In this document: one piece after another, positions 2,545-55,158 of the stretch | How the letters are laid out: the number at the start of each line of letters is the position of its first letter | Numbering within the stretch: the stretch's first letter is position 1 | Assembly: GCA_003550305.1 (NCBI GenBank) | Contig: QKYT01000138.1 | Span: forward strand, 29,016-93,015 | Direction of reading: 5' to 3' | DNA from: Glomus cerebriforme | Taxonomy: Eukaryota > Glomeromycota > Glomeromycetes > Glomerales > Glomeraceae | Length of the DNA: 64,000 bases | Made by a program: the position numbers and the translations under genes | Notes under the pieces: model-generated | The model's input: only the letters and a program-made list of their open reading frames with translations | Database searches by the model: none | Told to the model about the DNA's origin: nothing

Positions 2545-3449
2545 ATGGCTGAAAAATTACCTACTGAAATATTACTTGATATTTTCACTAGATTCCTTTT
2601 TAATTCAAAGTAAGTATATTTTTTTTATTTATTTGTTTTTTATTTGTTTTTTTTTCCATTATTTAATCCTTTTATATCATAATTTTTTTTAACGATGTAT
2701 TAAATAAATATTATATAGATCGAATAATTTTAAACAACTAATGATACTTCGTCGTACATGTAAAAAATGGAATGAAATTATTCTTAAATGTGTTTTCGAT
2801 GAATTATCTAAGCAAAATCACAAGACTTGGGAAATTATGGTAAGTTTAAATAACATTTATTTATTTATTTATTCATTTATTTTTTTATTTAGGAGAAATG
2901 AGAATCAAATTTTATTTATTTATTTATTATTCCTTTCGATAGATTGGAATGTCCAATCCACGCAAGTGCGCGACGGCGGAATTACATTCATTCGATCAAA
3001 TAAATCAAATATTCAATTTCAATTTTCCACGACAACTAATATTAATCAAACCGGAACAAGATATTAAAGTCAATTTTAAATATCTTGATCATTATCCATT
3101 TTTATATACTTGCACATTATTTAAACCAGCTATACTGCAAGAATTTATAAATGATGCGAATAATAATCAAAAAGAATTTTCTTTTGTATTAAAAGATAAT
3201 AACAATAACAATAATAATAATGATAATAATAATAATGACGATAATAATGATGATGGTTTAAAAGATCAAGTACGATTGGAATTATTGAAAATAAAAGCAA
3301 AAGTATTCTGGGAAAAAGTTTATCATATATTTGATGACAATACTTTTGCCGAGATTAAAAAATCTTCCAATTACGTTTCACCGAGTTATGTTAATTATGG
3401 AGATCCGTACTTTGATCTTTGTCAAGATGCCTATCAGGATTTTAAATAA
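2545..3449 (+). CDS. F-box protein with poly-Asn/Asp tract
   Basis: Probable SCF substrate adaptor. Exons 2545-2609, 2719-2839 and 2943-3449 join in frame to 230 residues. The first exon reads MAEKLPTEILLDIFTRFLF, an F-box helix 1, and exon 2 continues with LMILRRTCKKWNEIILK, the usual xxxVCKxWxxIxx part. The third exon holds a low-complexity run of Asn and Asp (genomic about 3198-3254) between two conserved-looking stretches. Exon 1 is exactly 65 nt with a phase-2 donor, identical in length and phase to exon 1 of the minus-strand F-box gene at 3690-4520. The C-terminal substrate-binding part has no recognisable LRR, WD or kelch repeats. Confidence 0.75.
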
Positions 3450-7358: not shown

Positions 7359-9009
7359 TAAGTTGTTAATTACTGTATGATAGCCTTTGCTTTCAGCAAT
7401 ATTAATTATCTCTTAGTCTTGACTATTATGATAATCAAAAATTCAAAACACGATTTGACGAGAATCTCCAATTCAAATCTGTGCAGACTGTGCTGCGGAT
7501 TTTAACACGTCAATCACGAGTGTTAGGGTTTAATGGCTACAGTCTAGTATAAATATGTATAAAATATATTACCTGTGAATCGGCTCAATCCATCCACACT
7601 GTTATTATCTGATGAAACTATTTGGCATCCAGCAAGATAATATTCAGCGAGAAATAAAATAAAATTATATAACTTTAGCTCAAATTATTTCATGGTTAAA
7701 ACATTAAAGAAACTCATGAAGTCCATATTTCTCGCAATAACACTCGACGAGACTTTTTTTTCGTGAAGGTGAAGGTTAAATATTATGAAGCAAAATATTT
7801 TGTAATTTCAATAATTTAATAATTAATTTTTTTATTCAACGACAGCGTTCGGCAGATGGCCTGTGATTCAAATGACAAGATTTGTGAATCACATGACAAG
7901 ATATCAGCAAATCAAAATCAAATGACCGAAATGACTGACCAAATGACAAAAGTGATTGGGCAAATCCTTCCCTTATTTGGATCGATATACCCATTAACTA
8001 TATTTTTAAACTGTAAAGTTAGTAAATCTTTATTATCCGTTTTAGAGCTTTAATAAAACATTCTTGTTTATCTCTAATTGTGAGTTTATTATGTGATGTT
8101 TCGTTTCATTATTATGTAACCGTGTATATATTCGGGTTATTAAAATATTAGTGAAAAAATTGTTTTTTGAAACCATATTAAACGAATAGTAGAAGATTGG
8201 CATATTCGCTTCTTTTTTTTTTGTGTTCATTTTTTCATTATCGCTAGAGTAATTTATATTTCTATCGTATTCCTATTTTATCTGGCTTTTTTCTAAGTAT
8301 TTTACTAGAAACTATAAAGCAATTGTTATTAGCACATTGTTTAAACGATTTCTCCTCAAAAACTTTTAAAATTCATCCTATATCAGTAATTTTTTTTTCT
8401 TGTTTGATGATTAGCCATTATCGAATTTCAAAATTACAAAAAGTTTGGATTACTTCTCGAATTGTTTCCTTTCTTAATATAGATCATATATCCGAGTAAA
8501 AAGTTGTGTAATCCTATTAATTAATCAATTATTCTCAAGCAAAAGTTTTGTGAATTCAGAAAGAAAATCTCTACAAACAGACGGAATAAGAATTAGATTT
8601 GGAAGGCAAGCGAAATAATTAGATTCTTGGATTTGATTTTTATCAAGCAATTTTGTCCAAAAGTAAGTCAGCAAGATCATTAATGAGAAAGCCTCTCTTT
8701 CGGTTAAATTCCTTTGCTCTACATGATGGCTTCGTCTATTTATAGTTTAATATATCAAAGAAAAAAAAAGATCCGTATCCATATCCATATACGTTCACGC
8801 TATTCATAAAGTTGTTTTAAAAGAATTTAACTTAGCAGTTGATATTTACACATGATTGTGCCTAAATATTGCCTTGCTAGCATTAGATTCGCCAACAGTG
8901 AACGATATATGTAATATGAATCTTTAAAATTTAATACCATTTTAAATAATTTCTTTTTTAATTCAATTTTTTTTTTTTTTATAATTTACAATTAAATATT
9001 GGAAAATAA

Positions 9010-10169
9010 TTTTAAATCATCTGCAAATATGGAAAAATAATACCATGTTACGGGATAACAAAAGATCCTGATGGAAATTACATGCTTGTAATGAATAAAT
9101 ATAATAAAAATTTAAGAGAATATTTGCAACAAAATCATAATAAACTTACATGGGAAAATAAAATTAAAATTATCAATGATATTACTATTTCACTTCGTAA
9201 TATTCATGAAGAAAATGCAATTCACAGAGATTTGCATTCTGGAAATATATTATATAATCAATCTAAACAAAGGTTCTGTATCAGTGATCTTGGATTTTGT
9301 GGGCCAGCTGATAAACCATTAAATAGTATATACGGGAATCTTCCTTATATTGCACCTGAAGTTATCAGAAAAGGATATACATTTGCAACTGATATTTATA
9401 GTATTGGCATGCTTATGTGGGAAATTTCATCTGGACAACCACCTTTTATTAATTATGAAAATGATCATGATCTTGATAGTTTTGATCAAATGAATTATGA
9501 TTATAATCTTGCAATGAAAATAATAAATGGACCAAAAATAGTATCAGGAACTCCTTTAGAATATAGAAAATTAATGAAACAATGTTGGAATGCTGATCCG
9601 ACAAAAAGGCCTAATATCATCAATCTTGTCGATAAGATATAAGAATAAAAGTATGATCAAAAAATTAATTAAAAAGATCAAAAAAATTACAACATCTGAA
9701 CAAACAAATGACATAAGCAGCATTAAAAGTAACTATACAAGTACTAGTAGGTTATTTACAAGTAAAGTTTATCAATTTACAAATCTTCCTGAACCAAGGA
9801 ACGCGACAGAAGGTATTTATAATTTTTACAAATAAACATTTTAGAACGATATCTTTTGTTTTTTTTTCGATTTCTCATTATATTTTCATTAATACTGTTT
9901 TTTTAAATATTTCATTTTTGTTTAAACAGAAGAACAAGAAGGTATACGCACGTGTTATTTTTTTTTAGCTTTAATAAATTTTTACAAAGTATTTAACTAA
10001 CTTATTTTAAAGTATTTCATAGTAACCCATATAGCTTTAACATTCCGTTTAATAGTAAGTTTTTACTAAAATAATTTTAACAATTTATTTTTTTATTAAT
10101 CTTTTATTTTTATTTTTAGTCGATGATTTAAACGGCCAAAATGATGATAATACGTCAAAAGTCATGTAA
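9010..10169 (+). pseudogene. TKL-like kinase copy, 5'-truncated and frameshifted
   Basis: A decayed member of the window's kinase family. The second-exon kinase core is readable from about 9025 (KYGKIIPCYGITKDPDGNYM) through HRDLHSGNIL, SDLGFCGP, IAPEVI and PTKRPN. There is no Cys-rich first exon or ATP-binding lobe upstream. The core frame stops at about 9640, but the homologous tail (SKVYQFTNLPEPRNATEG) continues in the +2 frame to 9812, so one frameshift lies at about 9600-9640. A 12-nt microexon (AAGAACAAGAAG) at 9930-9941 and a diverged tail exon ending in TAA at 10167 follow. Without a nucleotide-binding lobe it cannot encode a working kinase. Confidence 0.8.
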
Positions 10170-10330
10170 AGGTAAATTTTTACCATCAATTTTAAATTTA
10201 ATTTTCGAAATCATGTGTTAACTCTTTTATAATTATCAGATGATACTAAGATTTTATCCAAAGTATTTGAAAATATAGTAACAATTATACCAAGTATATA
10301 AATTAAAATATAATAACTTTTTATATATAG

Positions 10331-11314
10331 ATATTCAAAATAAATGCGAAAAGAAACGTTACATCAAATGGGGAATAATATTGATGATATTGATGGTATT
10401 GAGAACATAAATTTTATACAATAATTAATAGTTATTCGGCACGAAGTGCCGAATAACTGTTATATTGGGTAAATCAAATTTGATTCCCAATATTATAAGC
10501 TACCTTATAGGTAGCGTCAGTTATTCGGTTCGAAGTGCCGAATGAGTGATTTATCCGGTGTCACGTGATTTCGCGTAATAAACTTTTTACTTTCATAGTT
10601 AACGCGTTTTTAAGCTTTTTTCTATAAACTTTTTTTTTAAAAATAAACCAATTTATTTCTTTCAATGGAGGATACAAATTTTAATAATGTAAGATAAATA
10701 TTTAAACATATTAAAACTACAAATTATTGCAAAATTAATAATAACTAATAAATTCTTTAGTCTTTTAAACCAACAGCTGAACTATGGTTATTTCAGGCAA
10801 TTCATCAACTGGAGTGCGAAATTATCTTAAAATAACAAAGGAGAAAAAAGAAAGACAATTATTATAAATAAAAATTATTATACAAATTGTTCTGTCTATA
10901 ATTAATTAGTTTATTTTAAACATTTTTATTGTATTTTTAATAAACAAATAATGCCTGATACACGATTTTAATGCCTGATACACGTTTTATTATAGTCATT
11001 ATTAATTATAAAAAAACTGGAAAAAATCACGGGATACCGGATAATAAGATTTATAACTAAAAAAAAATTTTTTTATTAATAAGGATGAAGTATATAACAA
11101 TCCAAATCTTCATTCAGAGGAATAAGATGAATTGGAAATTCCTGATGGTAATTATAATTTATATATTTTTAAAATTACCATTATAGCTAATTTTTTTTAT
11201 ATAATTACTTGTTTAAATACAGATGAATTTTAATTTATTTAATATTACATTTTATTGTTTTTTTTATTTTATTTTAGAATTATTTAAACACTAAGAATAG
11301 AATAATATACTTAG
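10331..11314 (+). pseudogene. Relic tail exons of the truncated kinase copy
   Basis: Further family tail exons persist downstream of the truncated copy. 10331-10400 (ATTCAAAATAAATGCGAAAA...) matches the minus-strand relic at 25838-25908. 11083-11146 matches tail exon 7 of the intact genes but has TAA where they have CAA (SEE*DELEIPD). A 3'UTR-like block with the CTAAG...CTTAG stem lies at 11291-11314. The hairpin array at 10431-10543 is inserted between them. Confidence 0.65.
10431..10543. repeat. Array of four adjacent hairpins
   Basis: Four inverted repeats follow one another. Hairpin 1 at 10431-10457 has an 11-bp perfect stem (GTTATTCGGCA, loop CGAAG). Hairpin 2 at 10462-10493 has stem ATATTGGG around an inner AATCAAATTTGATT. 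Hairpin 3 at 10499-10515 has stem GCTACC. Hairpin 4 at 10523-10543 has stem ATTCGG and is an imperfect direct repeat of hairpin 1 with one arm changed. Confidence 0.8.
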
Positions 11315-19605: not shown

Positions 19606-21146
19606 TTAATTCCTAGAAAAAAAATCATAATCAAAAGTGTTCATGATAATATTAATAATTTTCATAAAAATATTTCTAAAAATAAAACCAAAATATCCAA
19701 CCGGAGAAGATTGTCTTAAAGTGACAGATCTAGATTTTAACACATCAGCGGATGTTCGTTTTAACATTTCATTTTCATATTGTTTAATACAAGAAATATA
19801 ATTTTCTGGAGAATAATTAAGTAATGCTTGAGAAAGTTTGTCAGCATCTTCAATAGCATTATTTGCTCCCAATCCTAATACAGGACTCATAGCATGAGCG
19901 GCATCTCCTAATAATGTGACTCTACTACTTGTCCATGCATTAACAGATACAGATAACGGATCAATATCTTGTATCATTCTTCGTTGTACAGGATTGTAAG
20001 TTTTGAATGGATGTTTTTCTGGATCAGGAATTGTTTTAGGAACCAAATCCCATAATTCTAACATAATATTAGACAATTCACATTCTGGTCTTAATTTTCG
20101 AATCATTTGTTTAACATGTTCAATAACTGATGCAGGATCATTATCATCAACTTTAACATTTTCAATATCATCTAATTTAGTAGGATAACTAAAAGCTATT
20201 GATGCTCTATAACGAGTTTCATTTTTATCCTTATAATTTCGTTCTTGTTCTTGTTCAATTGGAATTAAACGAAAAATAACAAAAGTGATATCTCCATTTA
20301 ATCCAAGAGATTTCTGAAATAAACCGTTTCCATTAATCCCAACTAATCTGCTCATAAGATTTTTAGGTACGGCTACATCTGCATTAATTTGAGTAATTCC
20401 ATAATCAAAAATTTGTAATTCGGATATTTTTTGTTTTCGAACTAAAAGAAATAAAATTAATTTTTATTAAGTAAAAATAAGAAGAAAAATAAAATAAACA
20501 TATTTAAGATATTAAATTTACCTGGAGAATGAATTCCATCAGCACCAACTAAAATGTCACAAAATTCTTTCGAACCATCTTCAAAAAAGACCCAAACACC
20601 TTCTTCAGTTTCTTCGTATCCAATACATTTTTTACCNNNNNNNNNNNNNNNNNNNNNNNNNNNNNNNNNNNNNNNNNNNNNNNNNNNNNNNNNNNNNNNN
20701 NNNNNNNNNNNNNNNNNNNNNNNNNNNNNNNNNNNNNNNNNNNNNNNNNNNNNNNNNNNNNNNNNNNNNNNNNNNNNNNNNNNNNNNNNNNNNNNNNNNN
20801 NNNNNNNNNNNNNNNNNNNNNNNNNNNNNNNNNNNNNNNNNNNNNNNNNNNNNNNNNNNNNNNNNNNNNNNNNNNNNNNNNNNNNNNNNNNNNNNNNNNN
20901 NNNNNNNNNNNNNNNNNNNNNNNNNNNNNNNNNNNNNNNNNNNNNNNNNNNNNNNNNNNNNNNNNNNNNNNNNNNNNNNNNNNNNNNNNNNNNNNNNNNN
21001 NNNNNNNNNNNNNNNNNNNNNGATTCTCGTTCAAAGATTTTTACATTAAATTCTTTTTTATCTTTGTTCTTTATCAAAGCATGATAAAAAGTAAGTCCTC
21101 CAAGACCTGCACCAGTAATAATTACTGTTGGAATTTTTTGTTGCAT
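19606..21146 (-). CDS. FAD-dependent monooxygenase, copy A (assembly gap)
   Basis: Class A flavoprotein monooxygenase of the FAD_binding_3 type, which hydroxylates small organic substrates using NAD(P)H. Exon 1 starts at 21146 (MQQKIPTVIITGAGLGGLTF, Rossmann GxGxxG). Exon 2 runs from inside the gap to 20522 and contains the DG motif (DILVGADGIHSP). Exon 3 is 19606-20441 with the GD motif (SRVTLLGDAAHAMSPVLGLG). 385 N at 20637-21021 hide the end of exon 1, intron 1 and most of exon 2. Copy B has about 380 bp between the same flanks, so the gap size fits. The C terminus is amphipathic (NIFMKIINIIMNTFDY). Nothing visible indicates inactivation. Substrate unknown; salicylate-hydroxylase-like enzymes are relatives. 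Confidence 0.8.
20637..21021. other. Assembly gap (385 N)
   Basis: A run of N inside monooxygenase copy A. The flanks align with copy B, which has about 380 bp there. Confidence 0.99.
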
Positions 21147-23345
21147 TTTTTAAAAAGTGGATTTAATTATAATTTTATGAGATAATGTTTCTTGACGAGT
21201 TAAGTTGATAAAAACGACAAAGTTTTAATAATGATTTATTTATATTGAATTGATGCCAAGAAGACGAATAATTTTTTTCTTAGATATTTATTTTCGACGC
21301 AGAAATTTGCCGAGATTTATCCGATATTTTGTAAATTGTCAAGTACGATAGATTTTGTGATACATAATTTTCTCATAAGAATATTCTTCATAAATTATTA
21401 CATGCACGTTAATGGGTAATAAAACAATCAAAAATGTTGATAGTACATTAAATGGTGTAACATTTACATTATCGAAATTTATCCGAATTTAACCGGAATT
21501 TATCCAAAGAGATTTCTTGATAAAATTAGTCATTTATTCATTGGAACGGAGTGAAATTTCAACGGTCTTTAATTTCCGTATTTAATATTTTTATTGTATA
21601 AATCAGAATCACTTTTACTAAAACGAATGTATTTTTTTCTAAATATTTATTCTGATTATATAAGATTCGCAGCAATGATAATAAAATGAGTCATTGTATC
21701 ACAAATTTTTTTCAAAAAAATTAAACAAGTAAATAATAATTACACGTCAAGAAATTCTTATTTTCGATTACTGACAAGAATTGTAACAAAAATTTTCTCA
21801 TAATCCATTATATAAATTATGCGATATATTATTTTACACGATAATTTCATATCATAATTTTGATGTATATTGAATTTTTTTTTACATTATTCATTTTATT
21901 ATTTTGTTGTTAATGATAAAATTATGAATCATCACATTTAATTTCGGGTACCTAAAATAGTAAATTAATTTTTTAATCCATGAACGAGTATAATTAAATG
22001 AGTATATTTTGTCGAAAATTTTATTATAAGGGAAAGTTGAAAGAATTTACTTATTATAAATAAAATAAATAATAAAAATTGAATTTAAAGTGTTGTTTAT
22101 ACACATCGTATTATTTTTATTAAAATTTAGTAAACTGAACTTTTGCAAAATTGAATAAACACGAAAAACAGAATTTTAAACTGCGCGATTGATCATGACA
22201 ACTATTACGGTGCTAACTATTGATTAGAGAGTATCTATTATCCGACAAATAAAAGAACAAAGAAATTTTACGTCATTTTTGACACGGAAAATAAATTCAA
22301 ATAAAGATTTCGATACTGAAGTTCGACCTAATAAATTTTTAGTTATCCGCCCAAGAACAGCAAAAAACTTTATCTTTAAATTACGCGTAATTACTCGTTG
22401 ATCAATCCATCAGCATGAAATGTAGAAATAATTCACCGAATATTATTTATCATTTATTTGTGGGACGTTTACTTAAGCTATTCTTTTGTTTATTGGAGTA
22501 CAATTTAAGCGGGATACCTTTATTTATAGAAATGTTTCATTTCGGAAGGGTCTTTAAAATTTTTTTTTTCTAAAAAGTGTAATTCAAAGAGTAAATTTAT
22601 TTATTATTTAATTTCTCCTAATCTCCTATAACATTGTACATAAAAAAAAAATTTGAAAATAAATGTTTTTCGATCATTTTAAGATAGAAAGTATTGTTTA
22701 GTATTCAGCTAATAAATAAGAGTCATTAAACAACATATTTTATTAATTATTTTGTTCAAATCCAAATTTTTTAATTTTTAAACGAATTATCAATTATAAT
22801 ATTTCGGATGTTACGGATTAATCCCGCAATCTATTCTATTCAGATTACTGCAGCTAAATTTTATTAATTTATTGCAAGTCATTCAGCATTTTACAAACCA
22901 ATTATCGAATTTAAATTATGCTTTTTTTCGGTATTCAAAGAGTATAAAAGTATTATTATTTTATTTACATGAGTATTATAAACATTTAACATTTAACCAT
23001 TAGTAAATACAATTTATACGGATCGTTGAAACCCTGTCAATTAGGAGGAGGATATTGATTAATAATGTATTTAAAAGTTTATTTAAATTCTATAAAGAAT
23101 AATTTTTTTTAAAATAGAGCGGATTATATAATAACATCATGCAACACATACAGTACATAAATTCAGACTATTTTTACGGATTCGAATGAATTTAATCAAC
23201 ACCGTGATACATTTAACAATTAACATGTCATTTGTAAAAAAAAATATATATATATTTATTAAAACAATATAAATTTAACATAAAAAACTAAATATATATA
23301 AATATACACGATAAAAAAGATATAACAAAAACAATAAATTGATAT
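21147..23345. other. Spacer between the tandem monooxygenase genes
   Basis: 2.2 kb of AT-rich DNA without coding signal. It repeats TTTATCCGA-type words (for example 21316-21330 and 21478-21502), as does the sequence upstream of copy B (25034-25050). The duplicated unit therefore probably included 5' flank. Confidence 0.5.
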
Positions 23346-24883
23346 TTAATCCCTCAAGAAAAGATTAGTGTCAAAAAAATTCATAAGAAAATTTACAGTC
23401 TTCATAATAGCATTTCTAAAAATAGAACCAAAATATCCAACTGGTGAAGATTGCCTTAATGCAATAGACCTAGATTTTAGCACATCAGCGGATGTTCTTT
23501 TTAACATTTCATTCTCATATTCTTTAATACAAGAAATATAATTTTCTGGAGAATAATTAAGTAATGCTTGAGAAAGTTTGTCAGCATCTAAAATAGCATC
23601 ATTTGCTCCTAATCCCAATATAGGACTCATAGCATGAGCGGCATCTCCTAATAATGTAACTCTGCTACTTGTCCATACATCAACAGCTAATGGATTAACA
23701 TCTTGTAATTGTCTTCGTTGTACAGGGTTGTAAGTTTTAAATGGATATTCTTTTGGATCAGGAGTCGTTTTAGGGACCAAATCCCATAATTCTAACATAA
23801 TATCAGTCAATTCACATTCTGATCTTAATTTTCGAATCATTCGTTTAACATGTTCAATAACTGATGCTGGATCATTATCATCAACTTTAACTGGATTCTG
23901 TTCATCATTATCTAATTTAGTAGGATAGCCAAAAGCTAATGTTACTCTGTAACGAGGTTCATTTTGTTCTTGTTCTTTTATTGGAATTAAACGAAATATA
24001 ACAAATGTAGTATCTCCATTTAATCCAATAGTTTCCTGAAATGTGCCCTTTCCAGTGAATTTAATTAATCTGTTTAAAATACTTTTAGGTACGGCTACAT
24101 CTGCAAGAACTTGAGTTATCCCATAATAAAAAATTTGTAATTCAGGCATTTTTTGTTTTCGAACTAAATAGAAATAAAATTTATTTTTATTACGCAAGAA
24201 TAAAAAAAAAAATAAATAAATAAAATAAAATAAGTCAACATATTTAATATACTAATCTCTTACCTGGAGAATGAATTCCGTCTGCACCAACTAAAATGTC
24301 ACAAAATTCTTTCGAACCATCTTCAAAAAAGACCCAAACACCTTCTTCAGTTTCTTCGTATCCAATACATTTTTTACCCCATTGAAGTGGTACATTTTCT
24401 AATAGAATATCTCTGAGTCTATCCCGATAGGTAATAATTGCTGAAAACCCAGTAGAAACTTTTGCGACTTCATAAACATCTTTAACTTGTTTAGATGGAG
24501 GTCTTAATAACAAATTTCCTGTATGGTCGGTTAGTGAAAATCCATGATATTCTACATCAGGAATTGGATTTGGCATTGCTTTTGGAAGGTCCAAAGCGAC
24601 TGATGAAGGAATACAATTTATAAGAGATCGAGCTCCTTTATTGTTTATGCCTATATGATATCCTTGCCATCGATCTTTTTTTTTAACACGCTTGTTAGTC
24701 ACATATCATATTTAAAGTCTTTACGAAAAATTGATATATTTTTATACCTTGAGGACCAGATTCTCGTTCAAAGATTTTTACATTAAATTCTTTTTTATCT
24801 TTGTTCTTTATCAAAGCATGATAAAAAGTAAGCCCTCCTAGACCTGCACCACTAATAATTACTGTTGGAATTTTTTGTTGCAT
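23346..24883 (-). CDS. FAD-dependent monooxygenase, copy B (complete)
   Basis: Exons on the minus strand are 24748-24883, 24264-24674 and 23346-24163, giving 454 residues, a usual length for single-domain class A monooxygenases. The N-terminal Rossmann motif is GAGLGG at about 12-17 with the acidic residue of FERE ending strand 2. DRWQGYHIG follows directly across intron 1 (CAAG|GT ... AAAG|ATCG). The DG motif VGADGIHSP is at about 175. The GD motif SRVTLLGDAAHAMSPILGLG contacts FAD ribose and pyrophosphate. The reaction would be NAD(P)H-dependent hydroxylation or epoxidation; substrate unknown. It lies 2.2 kb upstream of copy A in the same orientation. The first two exons are nearly identical between the copies, whereas exon 3 has drifted clearly. 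Confidence 0.9.
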
Positions 24884-25547
24884 TTTTAAAAGTGGTCTTA
24901 ATTAATGAGAGATATATTTTCTCAATAACTTGAAGAAAGACTTTAAAGTTTTAATGGATTTATTTTGATGAAATTGAGATATTGATATTAAAGGAGATAA
25001 ATTTCATTTAGCTTATATATTCGATAAAAAAAATTGCCGATTTATCCGATTTTTTAACGTGTCAAATTTAAATGGTAATGATGTAACATTTCTCATTGCC
25101 GACATTTAACCGACAATTATTTTGTACGGCCTAACTAAAGATATTAATAGTACTGTTTATTTGGAATGTTACACATTCTGATTTACCAAAAAAAACTAAT
25201 AATATGGCGCAGAAAAATTCATACGACGCAGTAATTTTCTTACTTAAAATATCCAGATTAGGTTGCGCTCAAATTTTCAGCCAGAGTTGACGCTAATAAT
25301 TACAGTTTGCAAAATTACATGACCAAATACTGTACATAATTTGATATAGAATTTGTGGGATTAAAAAAGAAATCGGAACAGTCGGAATTAAAGGTTGTTT
25401 GGATCATCCAATATCCTTGTTAAATTAGTTCAGAATTCATAGACATTTTTATTATTTTTCACTTTGAATCGTGACGTATTTTAATTCCATTTGCAATATG
25501 AATATTTGAATTTATTCAAAGGTAAGATAGATTATTTAAATTACAAA
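24884..25547. other. Upstream flank of monooxygenase copy B
   Basis: No coding signal. AT-rich, with TTTATCCGA-type words shared with the flank of copy A. Confidence 0.4.
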
Positions 25548-26394: not shown

Positions 26395-28663
26395 CTAATT
26401 TAATAAATAGTTAAGATCCATCTTATCTAAGAAAAAATTGTTATAAAAAAATTAGTAATAAAATCTTATAAATCTAAAATATTCTATAATCATACCATAA
26501 AAAATATTTGATTCGTCTTGTTCTTCCAAATGGAGATTTTGATTATAATATAATTCATTCTTATCTATTTTTTTTAAAAAAAATAAAATAAACATAAATT
26601 CCTTATCATTATTTGTAATGTTACACTATTGAAAATATATTGTACAGTACATAAATTTCTACAATAACAATTTATTATAATAATTATGAAATATGAAAAT
26701 TCAAAAATTAGAAATAATTACCATCATTATTATTTAACTTTACTTTTTTAAAGTTAACTGGTTTAAAATCTTTGTCATCTATTTAAAACAAAATATATTT
26801 AATTATTAATAATTAATTGTGATATAAATTATGATAAATTACCATTAAAGTTTTTTCTTTTAGATTTGTTCTCTATTATTTTTTTGTAAAAAAAAAAAAT
26901 TATTAAACTATATAAAAAATTAAGAAATTCACAACATCATATATTAATTCAGTTATTAATTTTTAATCTTACCAATGATCAAATCATTCTGTATATCAAA
27001 GTCAAGTTCTGTACTATAATAAGCTATTAAAACAAAGTTAATATAAAAGTATATTAACATTATCAAATATAATTTTCAACATTCAAATCAATTTTTTTTT
27101 TAGCAAGTATCAATAATTACCTTCTTGTTCTTCTATTAAATAAAAAATTAAATGAGATTATATTATAATAAATTAAAATTTATAATAATTAATGTTTACC
27201 TTTTGTTGCATTTCTTGGTTCAGACATATCTTCAAAATTATAAACTCTGCTACTTAAACATTCAAAAGAGTAATTTGTAGATCTAGAACTTATGATAAAA
27301 TTTGTATTTAATTGAGAATTACTACTATTATTTATCAGTTGTTCGTTATTTTCATTTAAATATGATCTACGAAAATCTCTTATTTTTTTATTAAGAGTAT
27401 CAATATCAGGTCTTTTTGTTGGATCAGCATCCCAACATTGTTCCATTAATTCTTTATATTCTAAAGGAGTTCCTGGTATTGTTCTTGGTCTCATTCCATT
27501 TAATATCTTTATTGCAAGACCATAATTATGTTTACTTTCAAAAGGCGGTTGTCCAGATGAAATTTCCCACATAAGCATACCAATACTATAAATATCAGAT
27601 GCAAAGGTATATTCTTTTCCAGCAATAACTTCAGGTGCAATATAAGGAAGATTCCCGTATATACTATTTAATGGTTTATCAACTGGTCCACAAAATCCAA
27701 GATCACTAACATTAAATGATTGATTAAGTTGAGAAAATAATACATTTCCAGAATGCAAATCTCTGTGAATTGCATTTTCAGTATGAATTCTAGAAATTGC
27801 TAAAATTATGTCATAAGTAATTTGAACACCATCTTTCCATGTAAGTTTATAATGATTTTGTTGTAAAAAATTTCTTAAATTCATATCTAATTTACTAATT
27901 ACAAGCATGTAATTTCCATCAGATGGATTTTGAGTTAAACCAAAACATTGTACTATATGTCCATATTTGTTGCTTATAGTTAAATGAGATTTACCCTATA
28001 AAATTAAAAGATAATATTATTAAATAATATTTTAAATAATCTTATCGGATATTTTTTAATTATATATTCTACCTCTTCAAACCAACTTCTATCAGCGCTT
28101 TCAACATTCTCTAACTTTTTAAGTATTACACTTTGCTTTTCCATTCTTTTTAATTGATTTTCTTTAGAATCCCATTCATAATAACGTCCATCAATCCAAT
28201 CTGCTGTATAAATTTCAGAGAATCCACCTTTAGTTAAATATTTAATATTTTGTAAATTCTTATATGGGATCCATTCTACTATTCTTCTCGGGGAAATTGT
28301 TTCCATTTGACATTTTTGTATTAAATTATCAATGTCTTTATTTCCAGATGTCCAGTTTGAAAAATTTGCTTTTAAATAATTTCGAATACAACATTCACAG
28401 TATAATGTAGCTAAACATTCAATTTGACAATCGTTACAAATTCTTTTTGTTCCTTCATTATTAAGAATTTTAAATTTGTCAAACTCTTCATTTAATCGTT
28501 TTATTGCGGCTGATTTTTCATCTTTTGTAAGGGATTTGTCAGCAAGAACTGTTTGTTGTCTAAATTCATGTTGTTTTTCTAAATCATTTTGAACATTAAC
28601 ATTTATTAATGCATATGCTCTACTGATTGCAGCAGTAACTAATTCTATTCGAATCGTAGCCAT
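26395..28663 (-). CDS. TKL-like protein kinase with Cys-rich N terminus and microexon tail
   Basis: Complete gene, 545 residues. Exons (minus): 28073-28663, 27200-27995, 27121-27132, 26973-27023, 26843-26872, 26722-26778, 26496-26564, 26395-26426. The N terminus has a helical region, then a cysteine cluster at 76-92 (CNDCQIECLATLYCECC), possibly zinc-binding. The conserved WTSGN and EWIPY blocks follow. The kinase domain has a Gly-rich loop (TKGGFSEIYTADW, about 144-156), beta-3 Lys182, HRDLHSGN with catalytic Asp276, DLG in place of DFG (295), APE (317) and the C-lobe Arg of TKRPD. After PEPRNATKG comes a tail of EEQE, YYSTELDFDIQNDLII, ENKSKRKNFN, a Lys-rich piece, an acidic piece and DKMDLNYLLN. 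All tail introns are phase 1. The start is the ATG conserved in all paralogues. Signalling role unknown. Confidence 0.85.
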
Positions 28664-29115: not shown

Positions 29116-29305
29116 AAATACAGTACATAATGTGATGATCGGCATTAGTATTAGTAGCATTAATTCCTATTGGTTACCGCATTGTTCCTAAGGTTCGACC
29201 GATATTGAAACGCCCCTATCCAATAACTATTTATTACACTATAAAAATTAAAAAGATTATTATAATAATTTATAAATAACTTTTTCAAATACTTATAACA
29301 TTTAC
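29116..29305. other. Spacer before the kinase exon-1 pseudogene
   Basis: AT-rich. It contains no kinase second exon, which shows that the pseudogene upstream on the minus strand lacks its catalytic core. Confidence 0.5.
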
Positions 29306-29852
29306 CTCCTCAAACAAACTTCTATTAGCACTTGCAAAATTTTTTAACTTCATGAGTACTACTTTTAACTCTTTTCCTTTGTTAACGACCATCAATCCAA
29401 ACTGCTGTATAAATTCCAGAGCATCTACCTTTAGTTAAATATTTAATATTTTGTTAGTTATCATATAGGATCCATTCTACTATTCTTCTTGGAGAAATTG
29501 TTTCCATTTGTATTAAATTATCAATGTCATTATTTCCAGACGACCAGTTTGAAGAATTTGTTTTTAAATAATTTCGAACACAATGCTCACAATATAATGT
29601 AGCTAAACATCCAACTTGACAATCTTCACAAATTCTTTTTGTTCCTTCATTATTACGAACTTTATAATACTGTAGTCAAAATGTTTATTTAAAGATTTTT
29701 TGCTTCAGATTTTTCGTAATTTGTTTATCAACAAGAACTGTTTGTTAACTAAATTCATGTCGTTTTTCTAAATTGTTTTGAATATTAGCATCTACTAATG
29801 CATATGATCTATTAATTGCAACAGGAACTAATTCTTTTCGAATAATAGTCAT
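29306..29852 (-). pseudogene. Kinase-family exon 1 pseudogene
   Basis: A degenerate copy of the family's first exon, from ATG at 29852 (MTIIRKELVPVAINRSYALV) to the CTCCTCAAAC end at 29306. It is 547 bp against 591 in the intact genes. An early in-frame TAA falls where the others read Arg in HEFRQQ, and there are several small deletions. The donor site position is preserved, but no exon 2 or tail follows. The upstream GAAGGAACGGAGAT motif is retained at 29887-29900. Confidence 0.85.
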
Positions 29853-29900
29853 GATGAAAGTCTTTTATTGAAAAATAAAAAAATATGAAGGAACGGAGAT

Positions 29901-31010: not shown

Positions 31011-33297
31011 CTAATTTAATAAATAGTTAAAATCCATCTTATCTAAAAAAAATTCGTTTACAAAAATTAGTAATAAAATCTAATAAAGTGTAAAATAATT
31101 CTATAATCATACCATTAGAAATTTTTGTTTTATCTTGTTCTCCGTAATGAAAATTTGGATTTTGATATAATTTATCCTCATCTATTTTTAAATAAATTAA
31201 ATAAAATAAGCATAAATTCATTATTATTACACGTAATATAACTTCTTTTTTCCTTGTTAGTACATTGTAAGAATTTTACAATCACAATTTATTATTAATA
31301 ATTAGAATTTGAAAATTTAAAAATTTAGAAATAGTTACCTTCATTGTTATTTAATTTTACTTTTTTGGAATTAACAGTTTTAAAGTTTTCATCATCATCT
31401 ATTTAAAATAATCATAATTATTTCTTAATTGTTGATAATTAATTGTGATAAAAATGATTTGTCTATTACCATTAAAATAAATTCTTTTGGTTTTGTTTTC
31501 TATTAATTTTTTTTTAAAAAAAATAATATATAAATTATTAAGAATTCACAGAATTATATATTAATCTTAAATCTTACCAATAATCAAATCATTCTGTATA
31601 TCAAAGTCAAGTTCTATACTATAATAAGCTATAAAAACAAATAAACATAAATGTATTAAAGTTATCAATTTTCATAACCAAAAAAAATTTAAACCGTGTT
31701 AAAAATTACCTTCTTGTTCTTCTATTAAATAAAGGATAAAATAAATTACTACTTATAATGAAGTTAATTAAGATTTAATAATAAATAACAAATAATATTT
31801 ACCTTTCGTTGCATTTCTTGGTTCAGGCAAGCCTTTAAAATTATAAACTCTGCTNCTAAAATTTCCAAAAAAGGAATTGGTAGATCTAGTACTTATGCTA
31901 AAATTTGTAGATTTAGAACTTATGTTGCTAAAATTTAAATTTAACTGAGAATTATTAAAATTTGTATTATTATTTATCTGTTGTTTATTTTCATTTTGGA
32001 AATATAATCTACGTAAATCTTCAATTTGTTATTAAGAGTATGAATATCAGGTCTTTTTGTTGGATCAGCATCCCAACATTGCTCCATTAATAGTTTATAT
32101 TCTAAAGGAGTTCCTGGTATTATTCTTGGTCTCATTCCATTTACTATCTTTATTGCAAGATCATAATTATGTTTACTAATAAAAGGTGGTTGTCCAGATG
32201 AAATTTCCCACATAAGCATGCCAATACTATAAACATCAGATGCAAATGTAGTTTCTTTTCCAGCAATAACTTCAGGTGCTATGTAAGGAAGATTTCCGTA
32301 TATACTATTTAATGGTTTATCAACTGGTCCACAAAATCCAAGATCACTGATTCTAAATTTTTGACCAATTTGATTAAATAATATATTTCCAGAATGNAAA
32401 TCTCTGTGAANTGCATTTTCTCGATGGATTCTAGAAANNGNANANATNATNTCATNAGTAATTTGAATTCTATCTTTCCATGTAAGTTTATTTTGTTGTA
32501 AATATTCTCTTAAATTTTTATGCAATTTTTTCATTACAAGCATGTAATTTCCATCAGGATCTTTTGTTATCCCATAACATTTTACTATTGTTTCATATTT
32601 GTTGCTTATAGTTAAATGAGATTTACACTAAAAAAAAACAAAAATTTGCAATGATTCAATAATTTTTCAAATATTTTTTCAAAAAAAAAAAAATAAAATA
32701 AAATACCTCCTCAAACCAACTTCTATTGGCACTTTCAACATTTACTAACTTCTTAAGGATCACCATGTGGTCTCCATATCTTTTTAATTTTTTTCCTTCA
32801 TTATCCCATTCTTCATAAGGTCCATCAATCCAAACTGCCGTATAAATTTCAGAGCATCCACCTTTAGTTAAATATTTAACATTTTGTAAGTTATCATATG
32901 GGATCCATTCTACTATCTTATTTGGACTAATAGTTTTCATTTGACATTTTTGTATTAAATTATCAATGTCATTATTTCCAGACGTCCAGTTTGAAAATTT
33001 TGTTTTTAAATAATTACGAACACAATGTTCACAGTATAATGTAGCTAAACATTCATCTTGACAATCTTCACAAATTCTTTTTGTTCCTTCATTAAAAAGA
33101 ATTCTATTTTTATCAAAATCTATATTTAACCATTTTATTGCTTCCAATTTTTCATCTTTTGTAAGGGATTTGTCAGCAAGAATTGTTTGTTGTCTAAATT
33201 CATGTCGTTTTTCAGAATTATTAAGAATCTTATAATCTATCAATGCACGTGCCCTCCTACATGCAGCCGAAACTAATTTCATTCGAATAGTAGTCAT
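31011..33297 (-). CDS. TKL-like protein kinase with 1-nt frameshift before the tail
   Basis: Same architecture as the gene at 26395-28663. Exons (minus): 32707-33297 (591 nt), 31803-32627, 31710-31721, 31578-31628, 31470-31499, 31339-31398, 31113-31181, 31011-31042. Cys cluster CEDCQDECLATLYCEHC, HRDLHSGN region (several N), DLG, APE and TKRPD are present. Exon 2 is 825 nt, whereas the intact copies are 3n+1 (796, 811, 772). After TLNNKL the frame shifts at about 32026-32032 and stops at 31974, while the family tail (NENKQQINN...EPRNATKG) continues in another frame. This is either a real one-base deletion, giving a kinase without a tail, or a base error in a poorly resolved region. All microexons and their splice sites are intact. 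The first residue of exon 2 is Cys rather than Gly. Confidence 0.75.
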
Positions 33298-38689: not shown

Positions 38690-40934
38690 ATGACTACTAT
38701 TCGAAAAGAAATAGTTCATGTTGCAATTAATAGGGCATATGGATTAATAGATTATAATATTCAAAATAATTTAGAAAAACGACATGAATTTAGACAACAA
38801 ACAGTTCTTGCTGACAAATCCCTTACAAAAGATGAAAAATCATATGCAATAAAAGAATTAAATAAAGATTTTGACTGTAATAAAATTTTTTATAATAAAG
38901 GAACAAAAAGAATTTGTGAAAATTGTAAAGTTGAATGTTTAGCTACATTATACTGTGAACATTGTATTCGAAATTATTTAAAAACAAAATTTTCAAATTG
39001 GACGTCTGGAAATAATGACATTGATAATTTAATACAAAAATGTCAAATGAAAACTCTTAGACCAGATAGGATAGTAGAATGGATCTCGTACAATAATTTA
39101 CAAAATATCAAATATTTAACTAAAGGCGGATGCTCTGAAATTTATACAGCAGATTGGATTGATGGACGTTATGAAGAATGGGATAATGAAGGAAAAAAAT
39201 TAAAAAGATTTGGAAAGCAACTTGTTGTGTTAAAGAAGTTAGAAAATGTTGAAAGTGCCAATAGAAGTTGGTTTGANGAGGTAAATAATTTAAGAAGTAT
39301 TTGAAAAAGTTATTTAAAAAATCATTTAATAATAATATCTTTAATTTTTATATTTTTATAGGGTAAATCTCATTTTACTATGAGCAACAAATGTGGACTA
39401 ACAGTACCATGTTACGGGATAACAAAAGATCCATCCGATGGAAATTACATGCTTGTAATGAATAAATTGCATAAAAATTTAAGAGAATATTTACAACAAA
39501 ATAAGCTTACATGGAAAGATAGAATTAAAATTACTTTTGAAATAATATTTGCAATTTCTAGAATCCATCGAGAAAATGCAATTCANAGAGATTTGCATTC
39601 TGGAAATATATTATTTAATCAATTTGATCAACAATTTGGTATCAGTGATTTTGGATTTTGTGGACCAGCTGATAAACCATTAAANAGTATATANGGAAAT
39701 CTTCCTTACATAGCACCTGAAGTTATCGCTGGAAAAGGATATACATTTGCATCTGATATTTATAGTATTGGCATGCTTATGTGGGAAATTTCATCAGGAC
39801 AACCGCCTTTTATTAGTAAACATAATTATGATCTTGCAATAAAGATAGTAAATGGAATGAGACCAAGAATAATACCAGGAACTCCTTTAGAGTATAAAGA
39901 ATTAATGGAACAATGTTGGGATGCTGATCCAACAAAAAGACCTGATATTAATACTCTTAATAAAAAATTAAGAGATCTTTGTAGACTATATTATCAAAAT
40001 GAGAACAATGAACAACACATAAATAACATTAATAATATTATGAGTCTTAATAACTCTCAATTAGGTAAAAATTTTAGCATAAGTACTAGATCTACAAATT
40101 CCTTTTTTAAAAGTTTTAGTAGCAGAGTTTATAATTTTAAAGGCTTGCCTGAACCACGAAATGCAACAAAAGGTAAATATTCATTATAGTGTTAATTAAC
40201 TCTATTATAATGTAACTCATTTTATTCTTTATTTAATAGAAGAACAAGAAGGTAATTATTAACACGTTTAAAAAAAATTTTTTGGATATTGAAAATTTTA
40301 TTTGATAATTTACATTTATATTAAATTCGTTTTTATAGCTTATCATAGTTTAGAACTTGACTTTGATTTACAGAATGATTTGATTATTGGTAAGATTAAC
40401 AATTTAAATATTCATGAATGATTCTTTGAATTACTTAATTTATATAATTTAATAATCTATACAATATTTATAGAGAACGAAACTAAAACTCAAATTAAAA
40501 GAATCTATTTTAATGGTAAATAAATTATTTTTATAATAATTAATTATCAATAAATAAAATAATGTTTTCTATTCATTTAAAATAGATGATGAAAAAGAAT
40601 CAACTTTTAACTCTAAAAAAGTAAAGTTGAACAATGATGAAGGTAATTGTTACCATTAAAATTTCTTATTTTATAATTATTAACGGTAATTTATTATTTT
40701 ACAAATACATGTAGAATATATTATTAATGAAAATGATTACAATTATATGCAAAAAAAGTTATACTACAATTTACTTATTTTATTTCTTAATCATTTAAAA
40801 CTCTATAATAATTTATTTTAAAATATAGATGAGAATTTCAATTCAGAAGAACAAGGTAAATTAAAAATTTCTGATGGTATTAAAGATATAATTTTTTTTT
40901 AGATAAAATGGATCTTAACTATTTATTAAATTAA
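38690..40934 (+). CDS. TKL-like protein kinase with Cys-rich N terminus and microexon tail
   Basis: Plus-strand paralogue of the gene at 26395-28663, about 540 residues. Exons: 38690-39280 (591 nt), 39362-40172, 40240-40251, 40339-40389, 40474-40515, 40586-40642, 40829-40855 (or to 40876) and 40903-40934. It has the Cys cluster CENCKVECLATLYCEHC, Gly-rich loop TKGGCSEIYTADW, Lys in VVLKKLENV, catalytic loop xRDLHSGN (His codon contains an N at 39586), a canonical DFG (SDFGFCGP), APE and TKRPD. The tail pieces are EEQE, YHSLELDFDLQNDLII, ENETKTQIKRIYFN, a Lys-rich piece and an acidic piece. Four ambiguous bases (39277, 39586, 39685, 39694) prevent full reading but cause no frameshift. Intact catalytic residues suggest an active kinase. 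Confidence 0.85.
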
Positions 40935-52915: not shown

Positions 52916-55158
52916 TTAATTTAATAAAAAATTAAGATCCATTTTATCTAAAAAAAAAAAAAAATATCAATGAAATTAGTATTAATTTAATATCTAACAA
53001 AATTTAATATGTACTGTAGCTTACCATCAGAAATTCTTTGTTCTTCCGAATAAAAATTTGGATCATCTATATTTTTTTATATAGAAATTAATAATAAATT
53101 AAAGGAATAAAACGAGTAAAAATATACATTACCTGTATAATTTTGTTGACATCCAATTTCATTATCAGTATCCTCTATTATTCGTATTTCTAAATTAAAT
53201 AATTCATAAGGTTATTTTTAAATAATACGATTATATAAAAGAAAAAAATTCAAAATTTCGTGACAATTACCTTCATTATCATTAAACTTGACTTTTTTAG
53301 ATTTATCTTTTTTATCTATTTTTAAAGTAATAGAAAAAAAACATTAATTATTTTATTTATTGATAATTAATTGTTATAAACGTGATTTATTACCATTATC
53401 GAGAATTCTTTTTGACTTGTTCTCTAAATGTAGATTGTAATTAGTAATTATTGTATAAATTAATAATAAATCAAAGAATCATTCATGTAAACTTACCATT
53501 CTGTAAATCAAAATCAAATTGTATACAACGATAACCTATAAAATAAAAATGATATATAAATTTGTCGTTCGATATTTAAAAATTTAACAAGGATTAAATA
53601 ATTACCTTCTTGTTCCTCTGTTAAATTAAAAAGAAAAAAAAGAAATGAGTTATTAAATCTTAATAAACCAAACTTTCTTATAATATAACATAATGTTTAC
53701 CTTTTATTGTTGCATTTCTTGGTTCGGGTAAATCTTTAAAATTATAAACTTTGCTTTTAAAACTGTAAAAAAAGGAATCGGTAGATTTAGAACTTAATTG
53801 AGAACTAGTGTTATCTGGTTGTGGTTCATTATTATCTTTATATTGATAATAAGATTTAATTTTTCTTATTCTATTAAGAAGATCTTTCATATTTGGTCTT
53901 TTTGTTGGATTAGCATCCCAACATTGTTTCATTAATTTTTTATATTCCGTAGGAGTTCCGGGTATTATTTTCGGTCTCATTCCATTTACTATTCTCATTG
54001 CAAGTTCATCATTATGTTTAATAGCAAAAGGAGGTTGACCGGAAGTAATTTCCCACATAAGTAAACCAATACTATAAATATCAGATGCAGAAGTATATTC
54101 TTTTTTAGCAATAACTTCAGGTGCCATATAAGGAAGGTTTCCATATATACTATCTAATGGTTTATCAGCAGGTCCACAAAACCCAAAATCACTTATTTTA
54201 AAAATTTTAGAAAATAATATATTTCCAGAATGCAAATGTTTATGTATTGCATTTTCTTGATGAATTCTAGAAGTCGAAAAAATAATTTCATAAGCAATTT
54301 GAGTTCTTTCTTTCCAAGTAAGATCATTATGATTTTGCTGTAAATAACTTCTTAAATCCATATCCATTTTATTCGTTACAAGCATATAATTTCCATCTGA
54401 AGGATCTTGAGTTATACCATAACATTTTACTATTTGTCCATATTTATTACTTATAGTTATATGAGATTTACTCTACAAAAAATTATTAAAAAAGATATTT
54501 ATTATTAAATATTGTTTTTTTTTTAAAAAAATAACGATATCAAAAATATTTTATTAATATTATTTACCTCTTCGAACCAACTTTTATTAGCATTTTCAAC
54601 ATTTTCTAATTTTTTAAGTATTACAATTTGTTTTCCAGATCTTTTTAATTGATTTACTTTAGAATCCCATTCGTCATAACGTCCATCAAACCAATCAGCA
54701 GTATAAATTTCGGTACATCCACCTTTAGTTAAATAATTAATATTTTGTAAATTATCATATGGAATCCATTCTACTATCTTATCAGGTCTAAGAGTTTCCA
54801 TTTGACATTTTTGTATTAAATTATCAATATCATCATTTCCCGACGACCAATTAGAAAATTTTGATTTTAAATAATTACGAACGCAATGTTCACAATATAA
54901 AGTAGCTAAACATTCATCATGACAAACTTCACAAATTCTTTTTGTTCCTTCGTTATAAAGGATTTTATTATAATCATAAGATTTACTTAAAGATTTTATT
55001 GCATAAAATTTTTCATCATTTGTAAGAGATTTATTAGAAAGAATGGATTTTTGTAAAAATCTATGTTGTTTATCTATATTATTATGAATATTTAAATCTG
55101 TTAATGAATATGCTTTATTAATCGCAGCAGAAACTAGTTCTTTTCTAATTGTATTCAT
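52916..55158 (-). CDS. TKL-like pseudokinase candidate (HRD changed to HKH), microexon tail
   Basis: Full-length family member of 539 residues, intact frame. Exons (minus): 54568-55158 (591 nt), 53701-54472, 53606-53617, 53497-53535, 53394-53423, 53271-53315, 53133-53189, 53025-53066, 52916-52947. The Cys cluster (CHDECLATLYCEHC), Gly-rich loop (TKGGCTEIYTADW) and beta-3 Lys (VILKKLENV) are present. The catalytic loop reads HKHLHSGN: the catalytic Asp276 is His and the preceding Arg is Lys. The metal-binding DFG (SDFGFCGP) and APE are normal. It can therefore probably still bind nucleotide but should lack ordinary phosphotransfer. The tail has one microexon more than its paralogues (EIRIIEDTDNEIGCQQNYT, 53133-53189). 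The upstream GAAAGAACGGAGTTT motif sits 86-100 bp before the start. An open frame with every splice site intact argues for selection. Confidence 0.85.

What the first reader, a model, noticed from the sequence alone, without database searches (positions are those of the whole stretch)
26395..27132. Kinase genes end in a chain of frame-neutral microexons
In all four full-length kinase genes the kinase exon is followed by 5-7 microexons. Their lengths are 12, 51, 30, 57, 69 nt here; 12, 51, 30, 60, 69 at 31113-31721; 12, 51, 42, 57, 27 or 48 at 40240-40876; and 12, 39, 30, 45, 57, 42 at 53025-53617. All are divisible by three and all junctions are phase 1, so any microexon can be skipped or gained without changing frame. 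The pieces differ in charge: a Tyr/acidic piece, a Lys/Arg-rich piece (NKSKRKNFN), a second Lys-rich piece and an acidic piece. Skipping could therefore switch localisation or partner binding. This looks like a modular, splice-programmable tail on a fast-expanding kinase family.
Basis: partly seen in the sequence, partly recalled or inferred. Interest (0 to 1): 0.75.

Follow-up and report, generated by a model that had tools for sequence, protein, structure and literature searches.

The report
Exon-built modular tails on fungal kinases
In a mycorrhizal fungus, a large family of protein kinases carries a floppy tail encoded by a string of small, frame-neutral exons that evolution has added, lost and duplicated, but whether the fungus also mixes them by alternative splicing is not known.

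Summary
In window genes A-D all 21 internal tail exons are multiples of three and phase 1. It is family-wide in the same genome (very likely Glomus/Rhizophagus cerebriforme): a phase-free splice model gave chains in 43 of 51 loci, with 178 of 189 homology-supported tail exons symmetric 1-1 (156 of 165 without the window's loci). Without homology, 174 of 192 were multiples of three, against 8 of 37 in control sequence. The tail is mostly under purifying selection (dN/dS 0.18-0.41 in five of six pairs). It is a modular exon array: blocks are duplicated (L031), lost by splice-site decay (genes A-C against D) and differ among paralogs.

'Splice-programmable' is unproven. No RNA was available; exon skipping is 3% of splicing events in surveyed fungi (PMC3925392); retaining a tail intron meets a stop in 207 of 222 cases. 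The 12-nt EEQE exon is no free cassette: it lies in a conserved helix predicted with moderate to good confidence in Rhizophagus and Diversispora models. GC donors at one junction (10 loci) are the best candidate for regulation.

The parts
28073..28663 (-). Gene A exon 1: N-terminal Cys-rich segment and kinase N-lobe
   Evidence: spliced frame; PF07714 on the spliced protein
27200..27995 (-). Gene A exon 2: kinase C-lobe, linker and start of the anchor (SRVYNFEDMSEPRNATK), ends phase 1
27121..27132 (-). Gene A 12-nt microexon EEQE
   Evidence: pattern occurs 78 times genome-wide, 0 for the reversed control
26973..27023 (-). Gene A 51-nt exon AYYSTELDFDIQNDLII
26843..26872 (-). Gene A 30-nt exon ENKSKRKNFN
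26722..26778 (-). Gene A 57-nt exon DDKDFKPVNFKKVKLNNND
26602..26658 (-). Gene A probable decayed copy of the gene D 57-nt module, inside intron 5 (acceptor kept, frame broken)
   Evidence: alignment; boundaries approximate
26496..26564 (-). Gene A 69-nt exon DKNELYYNQNLHLEEQDESNIFY
26395..26426 (-). Gene A terminal exon DKMDLNYLLN*
32707..33297 (-). Gene B exon 1
   Evidence: boundaries checked
31803..32627 (-). Gene B exon 2, frame broken near 32.02 kb; Ns in the gene
31710..31721 (-). Gene B 12-nt microexon EEQE
31578..31628 (-). Gene B 51-nt exon
31470..31499 (-). Gene B 30-nt exon
31339..31398 (-). Gene B 60-nt exon
31113..31181 (-). Gene B 69-nt exon
31011..31042 (-). Gene B terminal exon DKMDFNYLLN*
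38690..39280 (+). Gene C exon 1 (contains N)
39362..40172 (+). Gene C exon 2 (contains N), ends phase 1
40240..40251 (+). Gene C 12-nt microexon EEQE
40339..40389 (+). Gene C 51-nt exon
40474..40515 (+). Gene C 42-nt exon
40586..40642 (+). Gene C 57-nt exon
40715..40771 (+). Gene C fossil of the gene D 57-nt module: acceptor and open frame kept (EYIINENDYNYMQKKLYYN), donor lost
   Evidence: end approximate
40829..40855 (+). Gene C 27-nt exon (48 nt, to 40876, if the distal donor is used)
40903..40934 (+). Gene C terminal exon DKMDLNYLLN*
54568..55158 (-). Gene D exon 1
53701..54472 (-). Gene D exon 2, ends phase 1; HRD motif reads HKH
53606..53617 (-). Gene D 12-nt microexon EEQE
53497..53535 (-). 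Gene D 39-nt exon
53394..53423 (-). Gene D 30-nt exon ENKSKRILDN
53271..53315 (-). Gene D 45-nt exon DKKDKSKKVKFNDNE
53133..53189 (-). Gene D 57-nt exon EIRIIEDTDNEIGCQQNYT, decayed in C and probably in A and B
53025..53066 (-). Gene D 42-nt exon
52916..52947 (-). Gene D terminal exon DKMDLNFLLN*
9016..10400 (+). Fifth, decayed copy: kinase C-lobe frame followed by the 12-nt EEQE exon and tail remnants; end approximate
   Evidence: L044

Best explanation
The tail is an array of symmetric (1-1) small exons attached to a tyrosine-kinase-like kinase family of arbuscular mycorrhizal fungi. Its first part (end of the kinase exon, the 12-nt EEQE exon and the start of the next exon) encodes a conserved anchor: a short strand and a helix predicted to be ordered. 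The rest is predicted disordered and is supplied by exchangeable exon modules. Because the internal exons start and end in phase 1, blocks can be duplicated, deleted or lost by splice-site decay with no frameshift, so the tails diversify as the family expands. Shown from sequence: structure, phase, family-wide pattern, conservation, examples of duplication and loss. Inferred: that the anchor packs on the kinase, and that the disordered modules tune partners or localisation. Most transcripts probably join all modules; the commonest alternative product is probably intron retention, which truncates the tail after a few residues.
For: Exact window structure. Family: 116 matches taken from the 142 listed (26 weaker rows dropped); 64 of the 78 exact 12-nt exon sites lie within 1 kb downstream of one of them. 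Phase-free splice models: 178 of 189 homology-supported internal exons 1-1 in 43 of 51 loci, 156 of 165 in 38 loci without the window's own; without homology 174 of 192 multiples of three, against 8 of 37 in control sequence; tail-intron lengths mod 3 flat, 75/75/72 of 222. Tail dN/dS 0.18, 0.28, 0.33, 0.34, 0.41 and 0.84 in six pairs, kinase part 0.45, 0.51, 0.59 in three. Loss: the D module matches a fossil in intron 5 of C and, more weakly, A and B. Block duplication: L031, repeats of 79% and 84% identity spanning exons and introns; repeated module runs in P0001 and P0031 and Diversispora P0171. Anchor: N462, A463, T464, E466, Q468 nearly invariant and E467 invariant in 40 chosen proteins; block pLDDT 85 and 77 at 451-470 and under 50 throughout 475-553; the same layout with a Diversispora query, blocks 81 and 68.
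Against: No transcript was seen: every junction is a prediction, although deposited proteins of several Rhizophagus species read across the same modules. 11 of 189 supported exons are exceptions, which I read as detours of the model past the tail end, into the kinase exon or in damaged copies; 20 further exons had no homology support, 11 of them 1-1; 8 of 51 loci gave no chain over my score cut. The splice matrices were trained on the window's 25 tail introns. One dN/dS pair (A/D, 0.84) is not low; its alignment is poor. The 40 and 44 proteins in the structure alignments were picked by me, favouring complete tails, which inflates the invariance, and the two alignments share 20 rows, so the two models are not independent. 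The Diversispora helix block has pLDDT 68 only. No model coordinates were inspected, so docking is not shown.
Confidence: 0.72

Rival explanations
1. Regulated alternative splicing: modules are included or skipped by life stage, giving one gene several kinase tails. GC-donor introns after the KxFKKLQIKN-type module would be the regulated junction.
For: Skipping any internal exon keeps the frame. GC donors (GCAAGT) follow 10 of 189 supported exons: 7 after a clear KxFKxLQIKN-type module, 2 after looser versions (L034, L036), 1 unclear (L058); non-canonical sites are 0-2% in surveyed fungi (PMC3925392, passage). Deposited gene models lack modules in frame: P0063 and P0113 (EEQE), P0018, P0042, P0084, P0098, P0110.
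Against: Skipped exons are 3% of alternative splicing events in surveyed fungi (PMC3925392; AM fungi not verified among them). The gene models are predictions, and tiny exons are easily missed. The EEQE exon is near invariant. Exon symmetry is explained by exon duplication and loss alone.
Confidence: 0.25
2. Tail length is switched by intron retention: keeping a tail intron adds Gly and a few residues, then stops, so the kinase keeps or loses the disordered part or the anchor helix.
For: 207 of 222 modelled tail introns contain an in-frame stop, median 6 residues in. Seven of 119 deposited models examined end in this way after the kinase exon (P0009, P0030, P0055, P0109) or after the 12-nt exon (P0023, P0106, P0118). 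Retention is 61% of events in surveyed fungi (PMC3925392).
Against: Introns this rich in A and T would give early stops anyway. Such models may be annotation errors, and such RNAs may be decayed.
Confidence: 0.3
3. Neutral leftover: the symmetry is inherited from one ancestral 1-1 exon that was duplicated, and the tail modules have no function beyond a spacer.
For: Distal modules differ between subfamilies and from Diversispora; the tail is predicted disordered.
Against: Five of six tail comparisons show dN/dS of 0.18-0.41. The EEQE anchor and, in one subfamily, the terminal DKMDLNYLLN are conserved between species.
Confidence: 0.2
4. Artefact: the small exons are not real and the region after the kinase exon is 3' UTR or intergenic DNA.
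For: The unspliced kinase frames of A, C and D run only a few codons past the first donor.
Against: Proteins of other species read through the same modules; mostly purifying selection; 78 sites of the 12-nt exon against 0 for the reversed pattern; phase agreement in a phase-free model.
Confidence: 0.02

Closest known systems
Schistosome micro-exon genes (MEGs)
   Same: Runs of very short exons, mostly multiples of three, on duplicated gene families (PMC10526429, abstract start and passages); disordered isoforms solved for one family (PMC10399815, abstract start in a listing).
   Different: MEG proteins are secreted, their introns reach about 5 kb and isoforms are documented; here the array is only the tail of a kinase, modelled introns are 40-224 nt, and isoforms are not shown.
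SP7-like effectors of Rhizophagus
   Same: Same fungi, hydrophilic modular proteins, expanded paralogs (PMC11333574, section 6 and passages).
   Different: They have a signal peptide, imperfect repeats and a conserved intron before the first repeat as family marks; no kinase, and no chain of 1-1 exons is described in what I read.
Animal neuronal microexons
   Same: Very short, often frame-preserving exons in regulated proteins (abstract starts).
   Different: Cassettes with shown tissue-specific use, controlled by Srrm3/4 (abstract start); here a tandem array in a fungus with short introns and no expression data.
Expanded kinase families of AM fungi
   Same: This family is part of such an expansion (2,533 kinase genes in R. 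irregularis, PMC10234402 passage; high-copy genes next to Mutator-like elements, PMC8647823 passages).
   Different: The passages that I saw do not mention the tail exon array.

Membership tests
Protein kinase, PF07714/PF00069 | Kinase domain above the curated cut-off | tested here: met
   Gene A 131 bits against 23.1; kinase fold by Foldseek for the model of homologue P0003
Protein kinase, PF07714/PF00069 | Catalytic HRD aspartate | tested here: inconclusive
   Present in gene A (IHRDLHSGN) and C (IXRDLHSGN, X from an N base); gene D reads IHKHLHSGN, so D may be a pseudokinase
Micro-exon genes (schistosome MEG) | Chain of short exons, mostly multiples of three | tested here: met
Micro-exon genes (schistosome MEG) | Most of the coding region in short exons, long introns | tested here: not met
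   Two long exons encode the kinase; modelled tail introns 40-224 nt
Micro-exon genes (schistosome MEG) | Signal peptide, secreted | not tested
   No signal-peptide predictor at hand; the N-terminus is part of the folded model
Micro-exon genes (schistosome MEG) | Isoforms by exon skipping | not testable with these tools
   No RNA data
SP7-like effectors | Imperfect hydrophilic repeats with a conserved intron before the first repeat | tested here: not met
   Kinase with 7-8 introns (genes A, C, D), tail modules of one gene mostly unlike each other by eye

The most novel reading that the evidence does not exclude
AM fungi run a combinatorial kinase-tail code: one gene yields several tails by regulated use of 1-1 microexons, with the GC-AG intron behind the KxFKKLQIKN module as a conserved weak donor that switches that basic module in or out, while the EEQE anchor helix stays constant. 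With over a hundred such matches in this genome alone, this would be a fungal counterpart of animal microexon programmes, in an organism that has no easy genetics.
Probability: 0.22. Interest if true: 0.78.

Novelty: new variant of a known kind. Interest (0 to 1): 0.55.

Why it matters
AM fungi carry thousands of expanded kinase genes whose role is an open question. If the tails are exon-built address labels, they give a concrete, testable reason for the expansion and a way to sort the genes by module content rather than by kinase domain. The array is also a readable natural case of exon-by-exon protein evolution in a fungus: a duplication, a hybrid exon and a fossil can be seen directly. And it warns annotators: gene models that miss a 12-nt exon or read into an intron will lose this tail.

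Tried and rejected
Artefact reading: rejected. A frame-breaking 55-nt exon in one subclade looked like a real exception; the sequence shows a GC donor, and with GC donors allowed the phase-free model gives 51-nt, phase-1 exons there. Non-kinase users of the EEQE exon: 14 of 78 sites had no family match within 1 kb; I held 7 of these 14. Five lie in kinase fragments or tails (L052, L055, L058, L062, L063); two (L050, L060) show no kinase nearby, and L060 runs into Ns; 7 were not read. Module-presence patterns and my sorting of database tails are crude and misplace some rows, so I use them only for rough counts and named examples. Control genes in the window: four models were usable (ELMO-like with mixed phases, kelch-like with mixed phases, two FAD genes with phase 1 only: 3 of 3 introns); the Tudor-like gene model failed. 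Paper searches (7 to 20 titles listed each) showed nothing that appeared to describe this tail; the library lacks most subscription papers, so this does not show that it is unpublished.

Full report
WHAT WAS CHECKED. The window is contig 216, bases 29016-93015, of a 112.5-Mb genome in 1,117 contigs. Deposited Glomus cerebriforme (Rhizophagus cerebriforme) proteins lie on contigs of exactly the same lengths as contigs here (63,701 for C804; 100,813 for C565; 167,460 for C322), so the organism is very likely that arbuscular mycorrhizal fungus. Kinase genes A, C and D have two long exons (Cys-rich N-terminus plus kinase domain; PF07714 at 131 bits for A) joined by a phase-0 intron. Then come 5 (A), 5 (B), 5 (C) and 6 (D) small internal exons and a 32-nt last exon. 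All 21 internal exons are multiples of three and phase 1. Lengths and coordinates in the finding check out. Gene B's kinase exon breaks frame (by eye) and the gene contains Ns, so it is not clearly full-length; gene D's HRD motif reads HKH.

IS IT MORE THAN CHANCE? I built splice-site matrices from the window's 25 tail introns and an exon-chain finder that does not favour any phase. Without homology, 174 of 192 chosen internal exons were multiples of three and 170 of 192 were 1-1, in 42 loci; without the window's own loci, 153 and 149 of 168 in 38 loci. In control sequence (reverse strands of the loci and window stretches outside the family's tails, started in phase 1; 89 runs) 8 of 37 were multiples of three and 5 of 37 were 1-1. 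With a phase-blind homology bonus from 85 tails of deposited proteins (the five G. cerebriforme ones that I saw were excluded) and GC donors allowed, 43 of 51 loci gave a chain above my score cut, and 178 of 189 homology-supported internal exons were 1-1; without window loci, 156 of 165 in 38. I read the 11 exceptions as detours past the end of the tail, into the kinase exon (L033) or in damaged copies; 20 exons lacked homology support, 11 of these being 1-1. Tail-intron lengths modulo three are 75/75/72 of 222, a useful internal control. In four control gene models of the window, 8 of 16 introns are phase 1, but 2 of 12 internal exons are 1-1 and 6 of 12 multiples of three. So phase 1 is not rare here; unbroken runs of 1-1 exons are. 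The paralogs are related, so these are not 189 independent events; the independent units are roughly eight or nine module types.

IS THE TAIL PROTEIN? Deposited proteins of R. irregularis, R. clarus, R. diaphanus and G. cerebriforme read across the same kinds of modules. Between window paralogs the tail shows dN/dS 0.28 (A/B), 0.41 (A/C), 0.18 (B/C), 0.33 (B/D), 0.34 (C/D) and 0.84 (A/D, poor alignment), against 0.59 (A/C), 0.51 (A/D) and 0.45 (C/D) for the kinase part.

ANATOMY. Modules recur across the family: EEQE (12 nt); A(F/Y)HSxxYDFxIPD; IDDFNxSSN; KSKRxxSN; SKKIKLNNN; KLSKxFKKLQINS; YxxETMQQQxKK; YQYxQRNY; DEIYNNPNLHSEEQDELEIPD; and a terminal DKMDLNYLLN or DGF (grouped by eye). The exact 12-nt exon with its splice sites occurs 78 times in the genome and 0 times as the reversed pattern; 64 of 78 lie within 1 kb downstream of one of 116 family matches, and 52 of these 116 lack an exact site there. 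The exact DKMDL(N) last-exon pattern is rare: 5 sites, 4 of them in the window. Junction residues are mostly encoded by GNN codons, as phase 1 with an exon ending in G demands (D 71, E 59, A 33, V 12, G 5 of 222), which by itself helps to make the tail acidic.

ANCHOR AND DISORDER. AlphaFold2 on R. irregularis P0003, with an alignment of 40 proteins that I picked, gives a folded N-terminus and kinase, a low-confidence linker 412-446, then blocks of pLDDT 85 and 77 at 451-470 (in SRVYYFKDLPEPRNATKEEQEAYHS, 449-473; strand 450-452, helix 465-472) and values under 50 from 475 to the end. A Diversispora query, P0122 with 44 proteins (20 rows shared with the first alignment), gives the same layout with less confidence: strand 467-469, helix 482-490 over DEEQQ, blocks 81 and 68, most of the remaining tail under 50. 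A motif pattern found the anchor in 64 of 91 Diversispora and 0 of 2 Acaulospora proteins, although Acaulospora P0207 shows NATIEEQ by eye. The 12-nt exon therefore encodes the heart of an old, probably ordered element, not a free cassette. That it packs on the kinase is inferred.

HOW THE ARRAY EVOLVES. Loss: gene D's 57-nt exon corresponds to a stretch of the long intron 5 in A, B and C (157, 157 and 186 nt). In C the acceptor and an open frame (EYIINENDYNYMQKKLYYN) remain but the donor is gone; in A the acceptor remains and the frame is broken; B is weaker, with no acceptor there. Gain: locus L031 contains a tandem duplication inside its tail (2736-2798 with 2952-3014 at 84%; 2806-2940 with 3079-3227 at 79%), and the model places a 72-nt hybrid exon at the joint, in frame. 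Repeated module runs also occur in deposited P0001 and P0031 and in Diversispora P0171; these are protein models without DNA seen. Symmetric exons make all of this frame-safe, which is sufficient to explain the pattern.

ALTERNATIVE SPLICING? Not shown. For it: skipping preserves frame; several deposited models lack one or more modules; and GC donors follow 10 of 189 supported exons, 7 of them a clear KxFKxLQIKN-type module. GC-AG introns are linked elsewhere with regulated splicing (recalled, no call). Against it: over 23 fungi, events were 61% intron retention, 23% alternative acceptors, 13% alternative donors and 3% skipped exons (PMC3925392, passages; I did not verify whether AM fungi are among them); in the intron-rich Creolimax only a minority of the differentially skipped exons keep the frame (PMC4739763, passages). 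Retention of a tail intron stops translation in 207 of 222 cases, after a median of 6 residues, and 7 of 119 deposited models examined end so after the kinase exon or the 12-nt exon. If splicing does program this tail, truncation is the likelier lever.

COMPARISON. It resembles schistosome micro-exon genes in exon architecture but is not a member: it has a kinase body and short introns (membership rows). It is part of the known AM fungal kinase expansion (PMC10234402, PMC8647823, passages). No paper that my ten searches listed appeared to describe the tail; the library is partial.

VERDICT. Observation confirmed and extended to the family; the modular evolution reading is well supported; the splice-programme reading is open, at about one in four.

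Noticed in passing
G000 C726, C36, C980, C765, C1049, C133, C1007 (L002, L004, L007, L008 read): Kinase matches in frames with 2-8 in-frame TGA; read with table 4, L002, L004, L007 and L008 are open frames of 660-967 aa. By eye L004, L007 and L008 have leucine-rich-repeat-like stretches, and L008 a segment like the fungal kinases (LLKWIPYEQFENPEYLSEGGFGKVYKARW). Possibly co-assembled Mycoplasma-related endobacteria with host-like kinases (that such bacteria carry them is recalled).
   Followed up: partly
L017, L024, L025, L030, L031, L034, L036, L057, L058, L067; also L029, L066 by eye: GC-AG introns with GCAAGT donors concentrated at one tail junction of a subclade.
   Followed up: partly
window 54216-54258: Gene D reads IHKHLHSGN in place of IHRDLHSGN: likely pseudokinase.
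   Followed up: partly
window 29290-29860: Decayed N-terminal kinase remnant between genes A and B on the minus strand, by eye.
   Followed up: no
window 8900-10400: Truncated fifth copy with stops but a recognisable EEQE exon and FHS-type module.
   Followed up: partly
window 19606-24900: Two neighbouring FAD monooxygenase-like genes (named by eye); the first has a long stretch of N.
   Followed up: no
P0107, P0171 (Diversispora epigaea): Deposited models with internal duplications of kinase or tail segments; real or annotation error not resolved.
   Followed up: no
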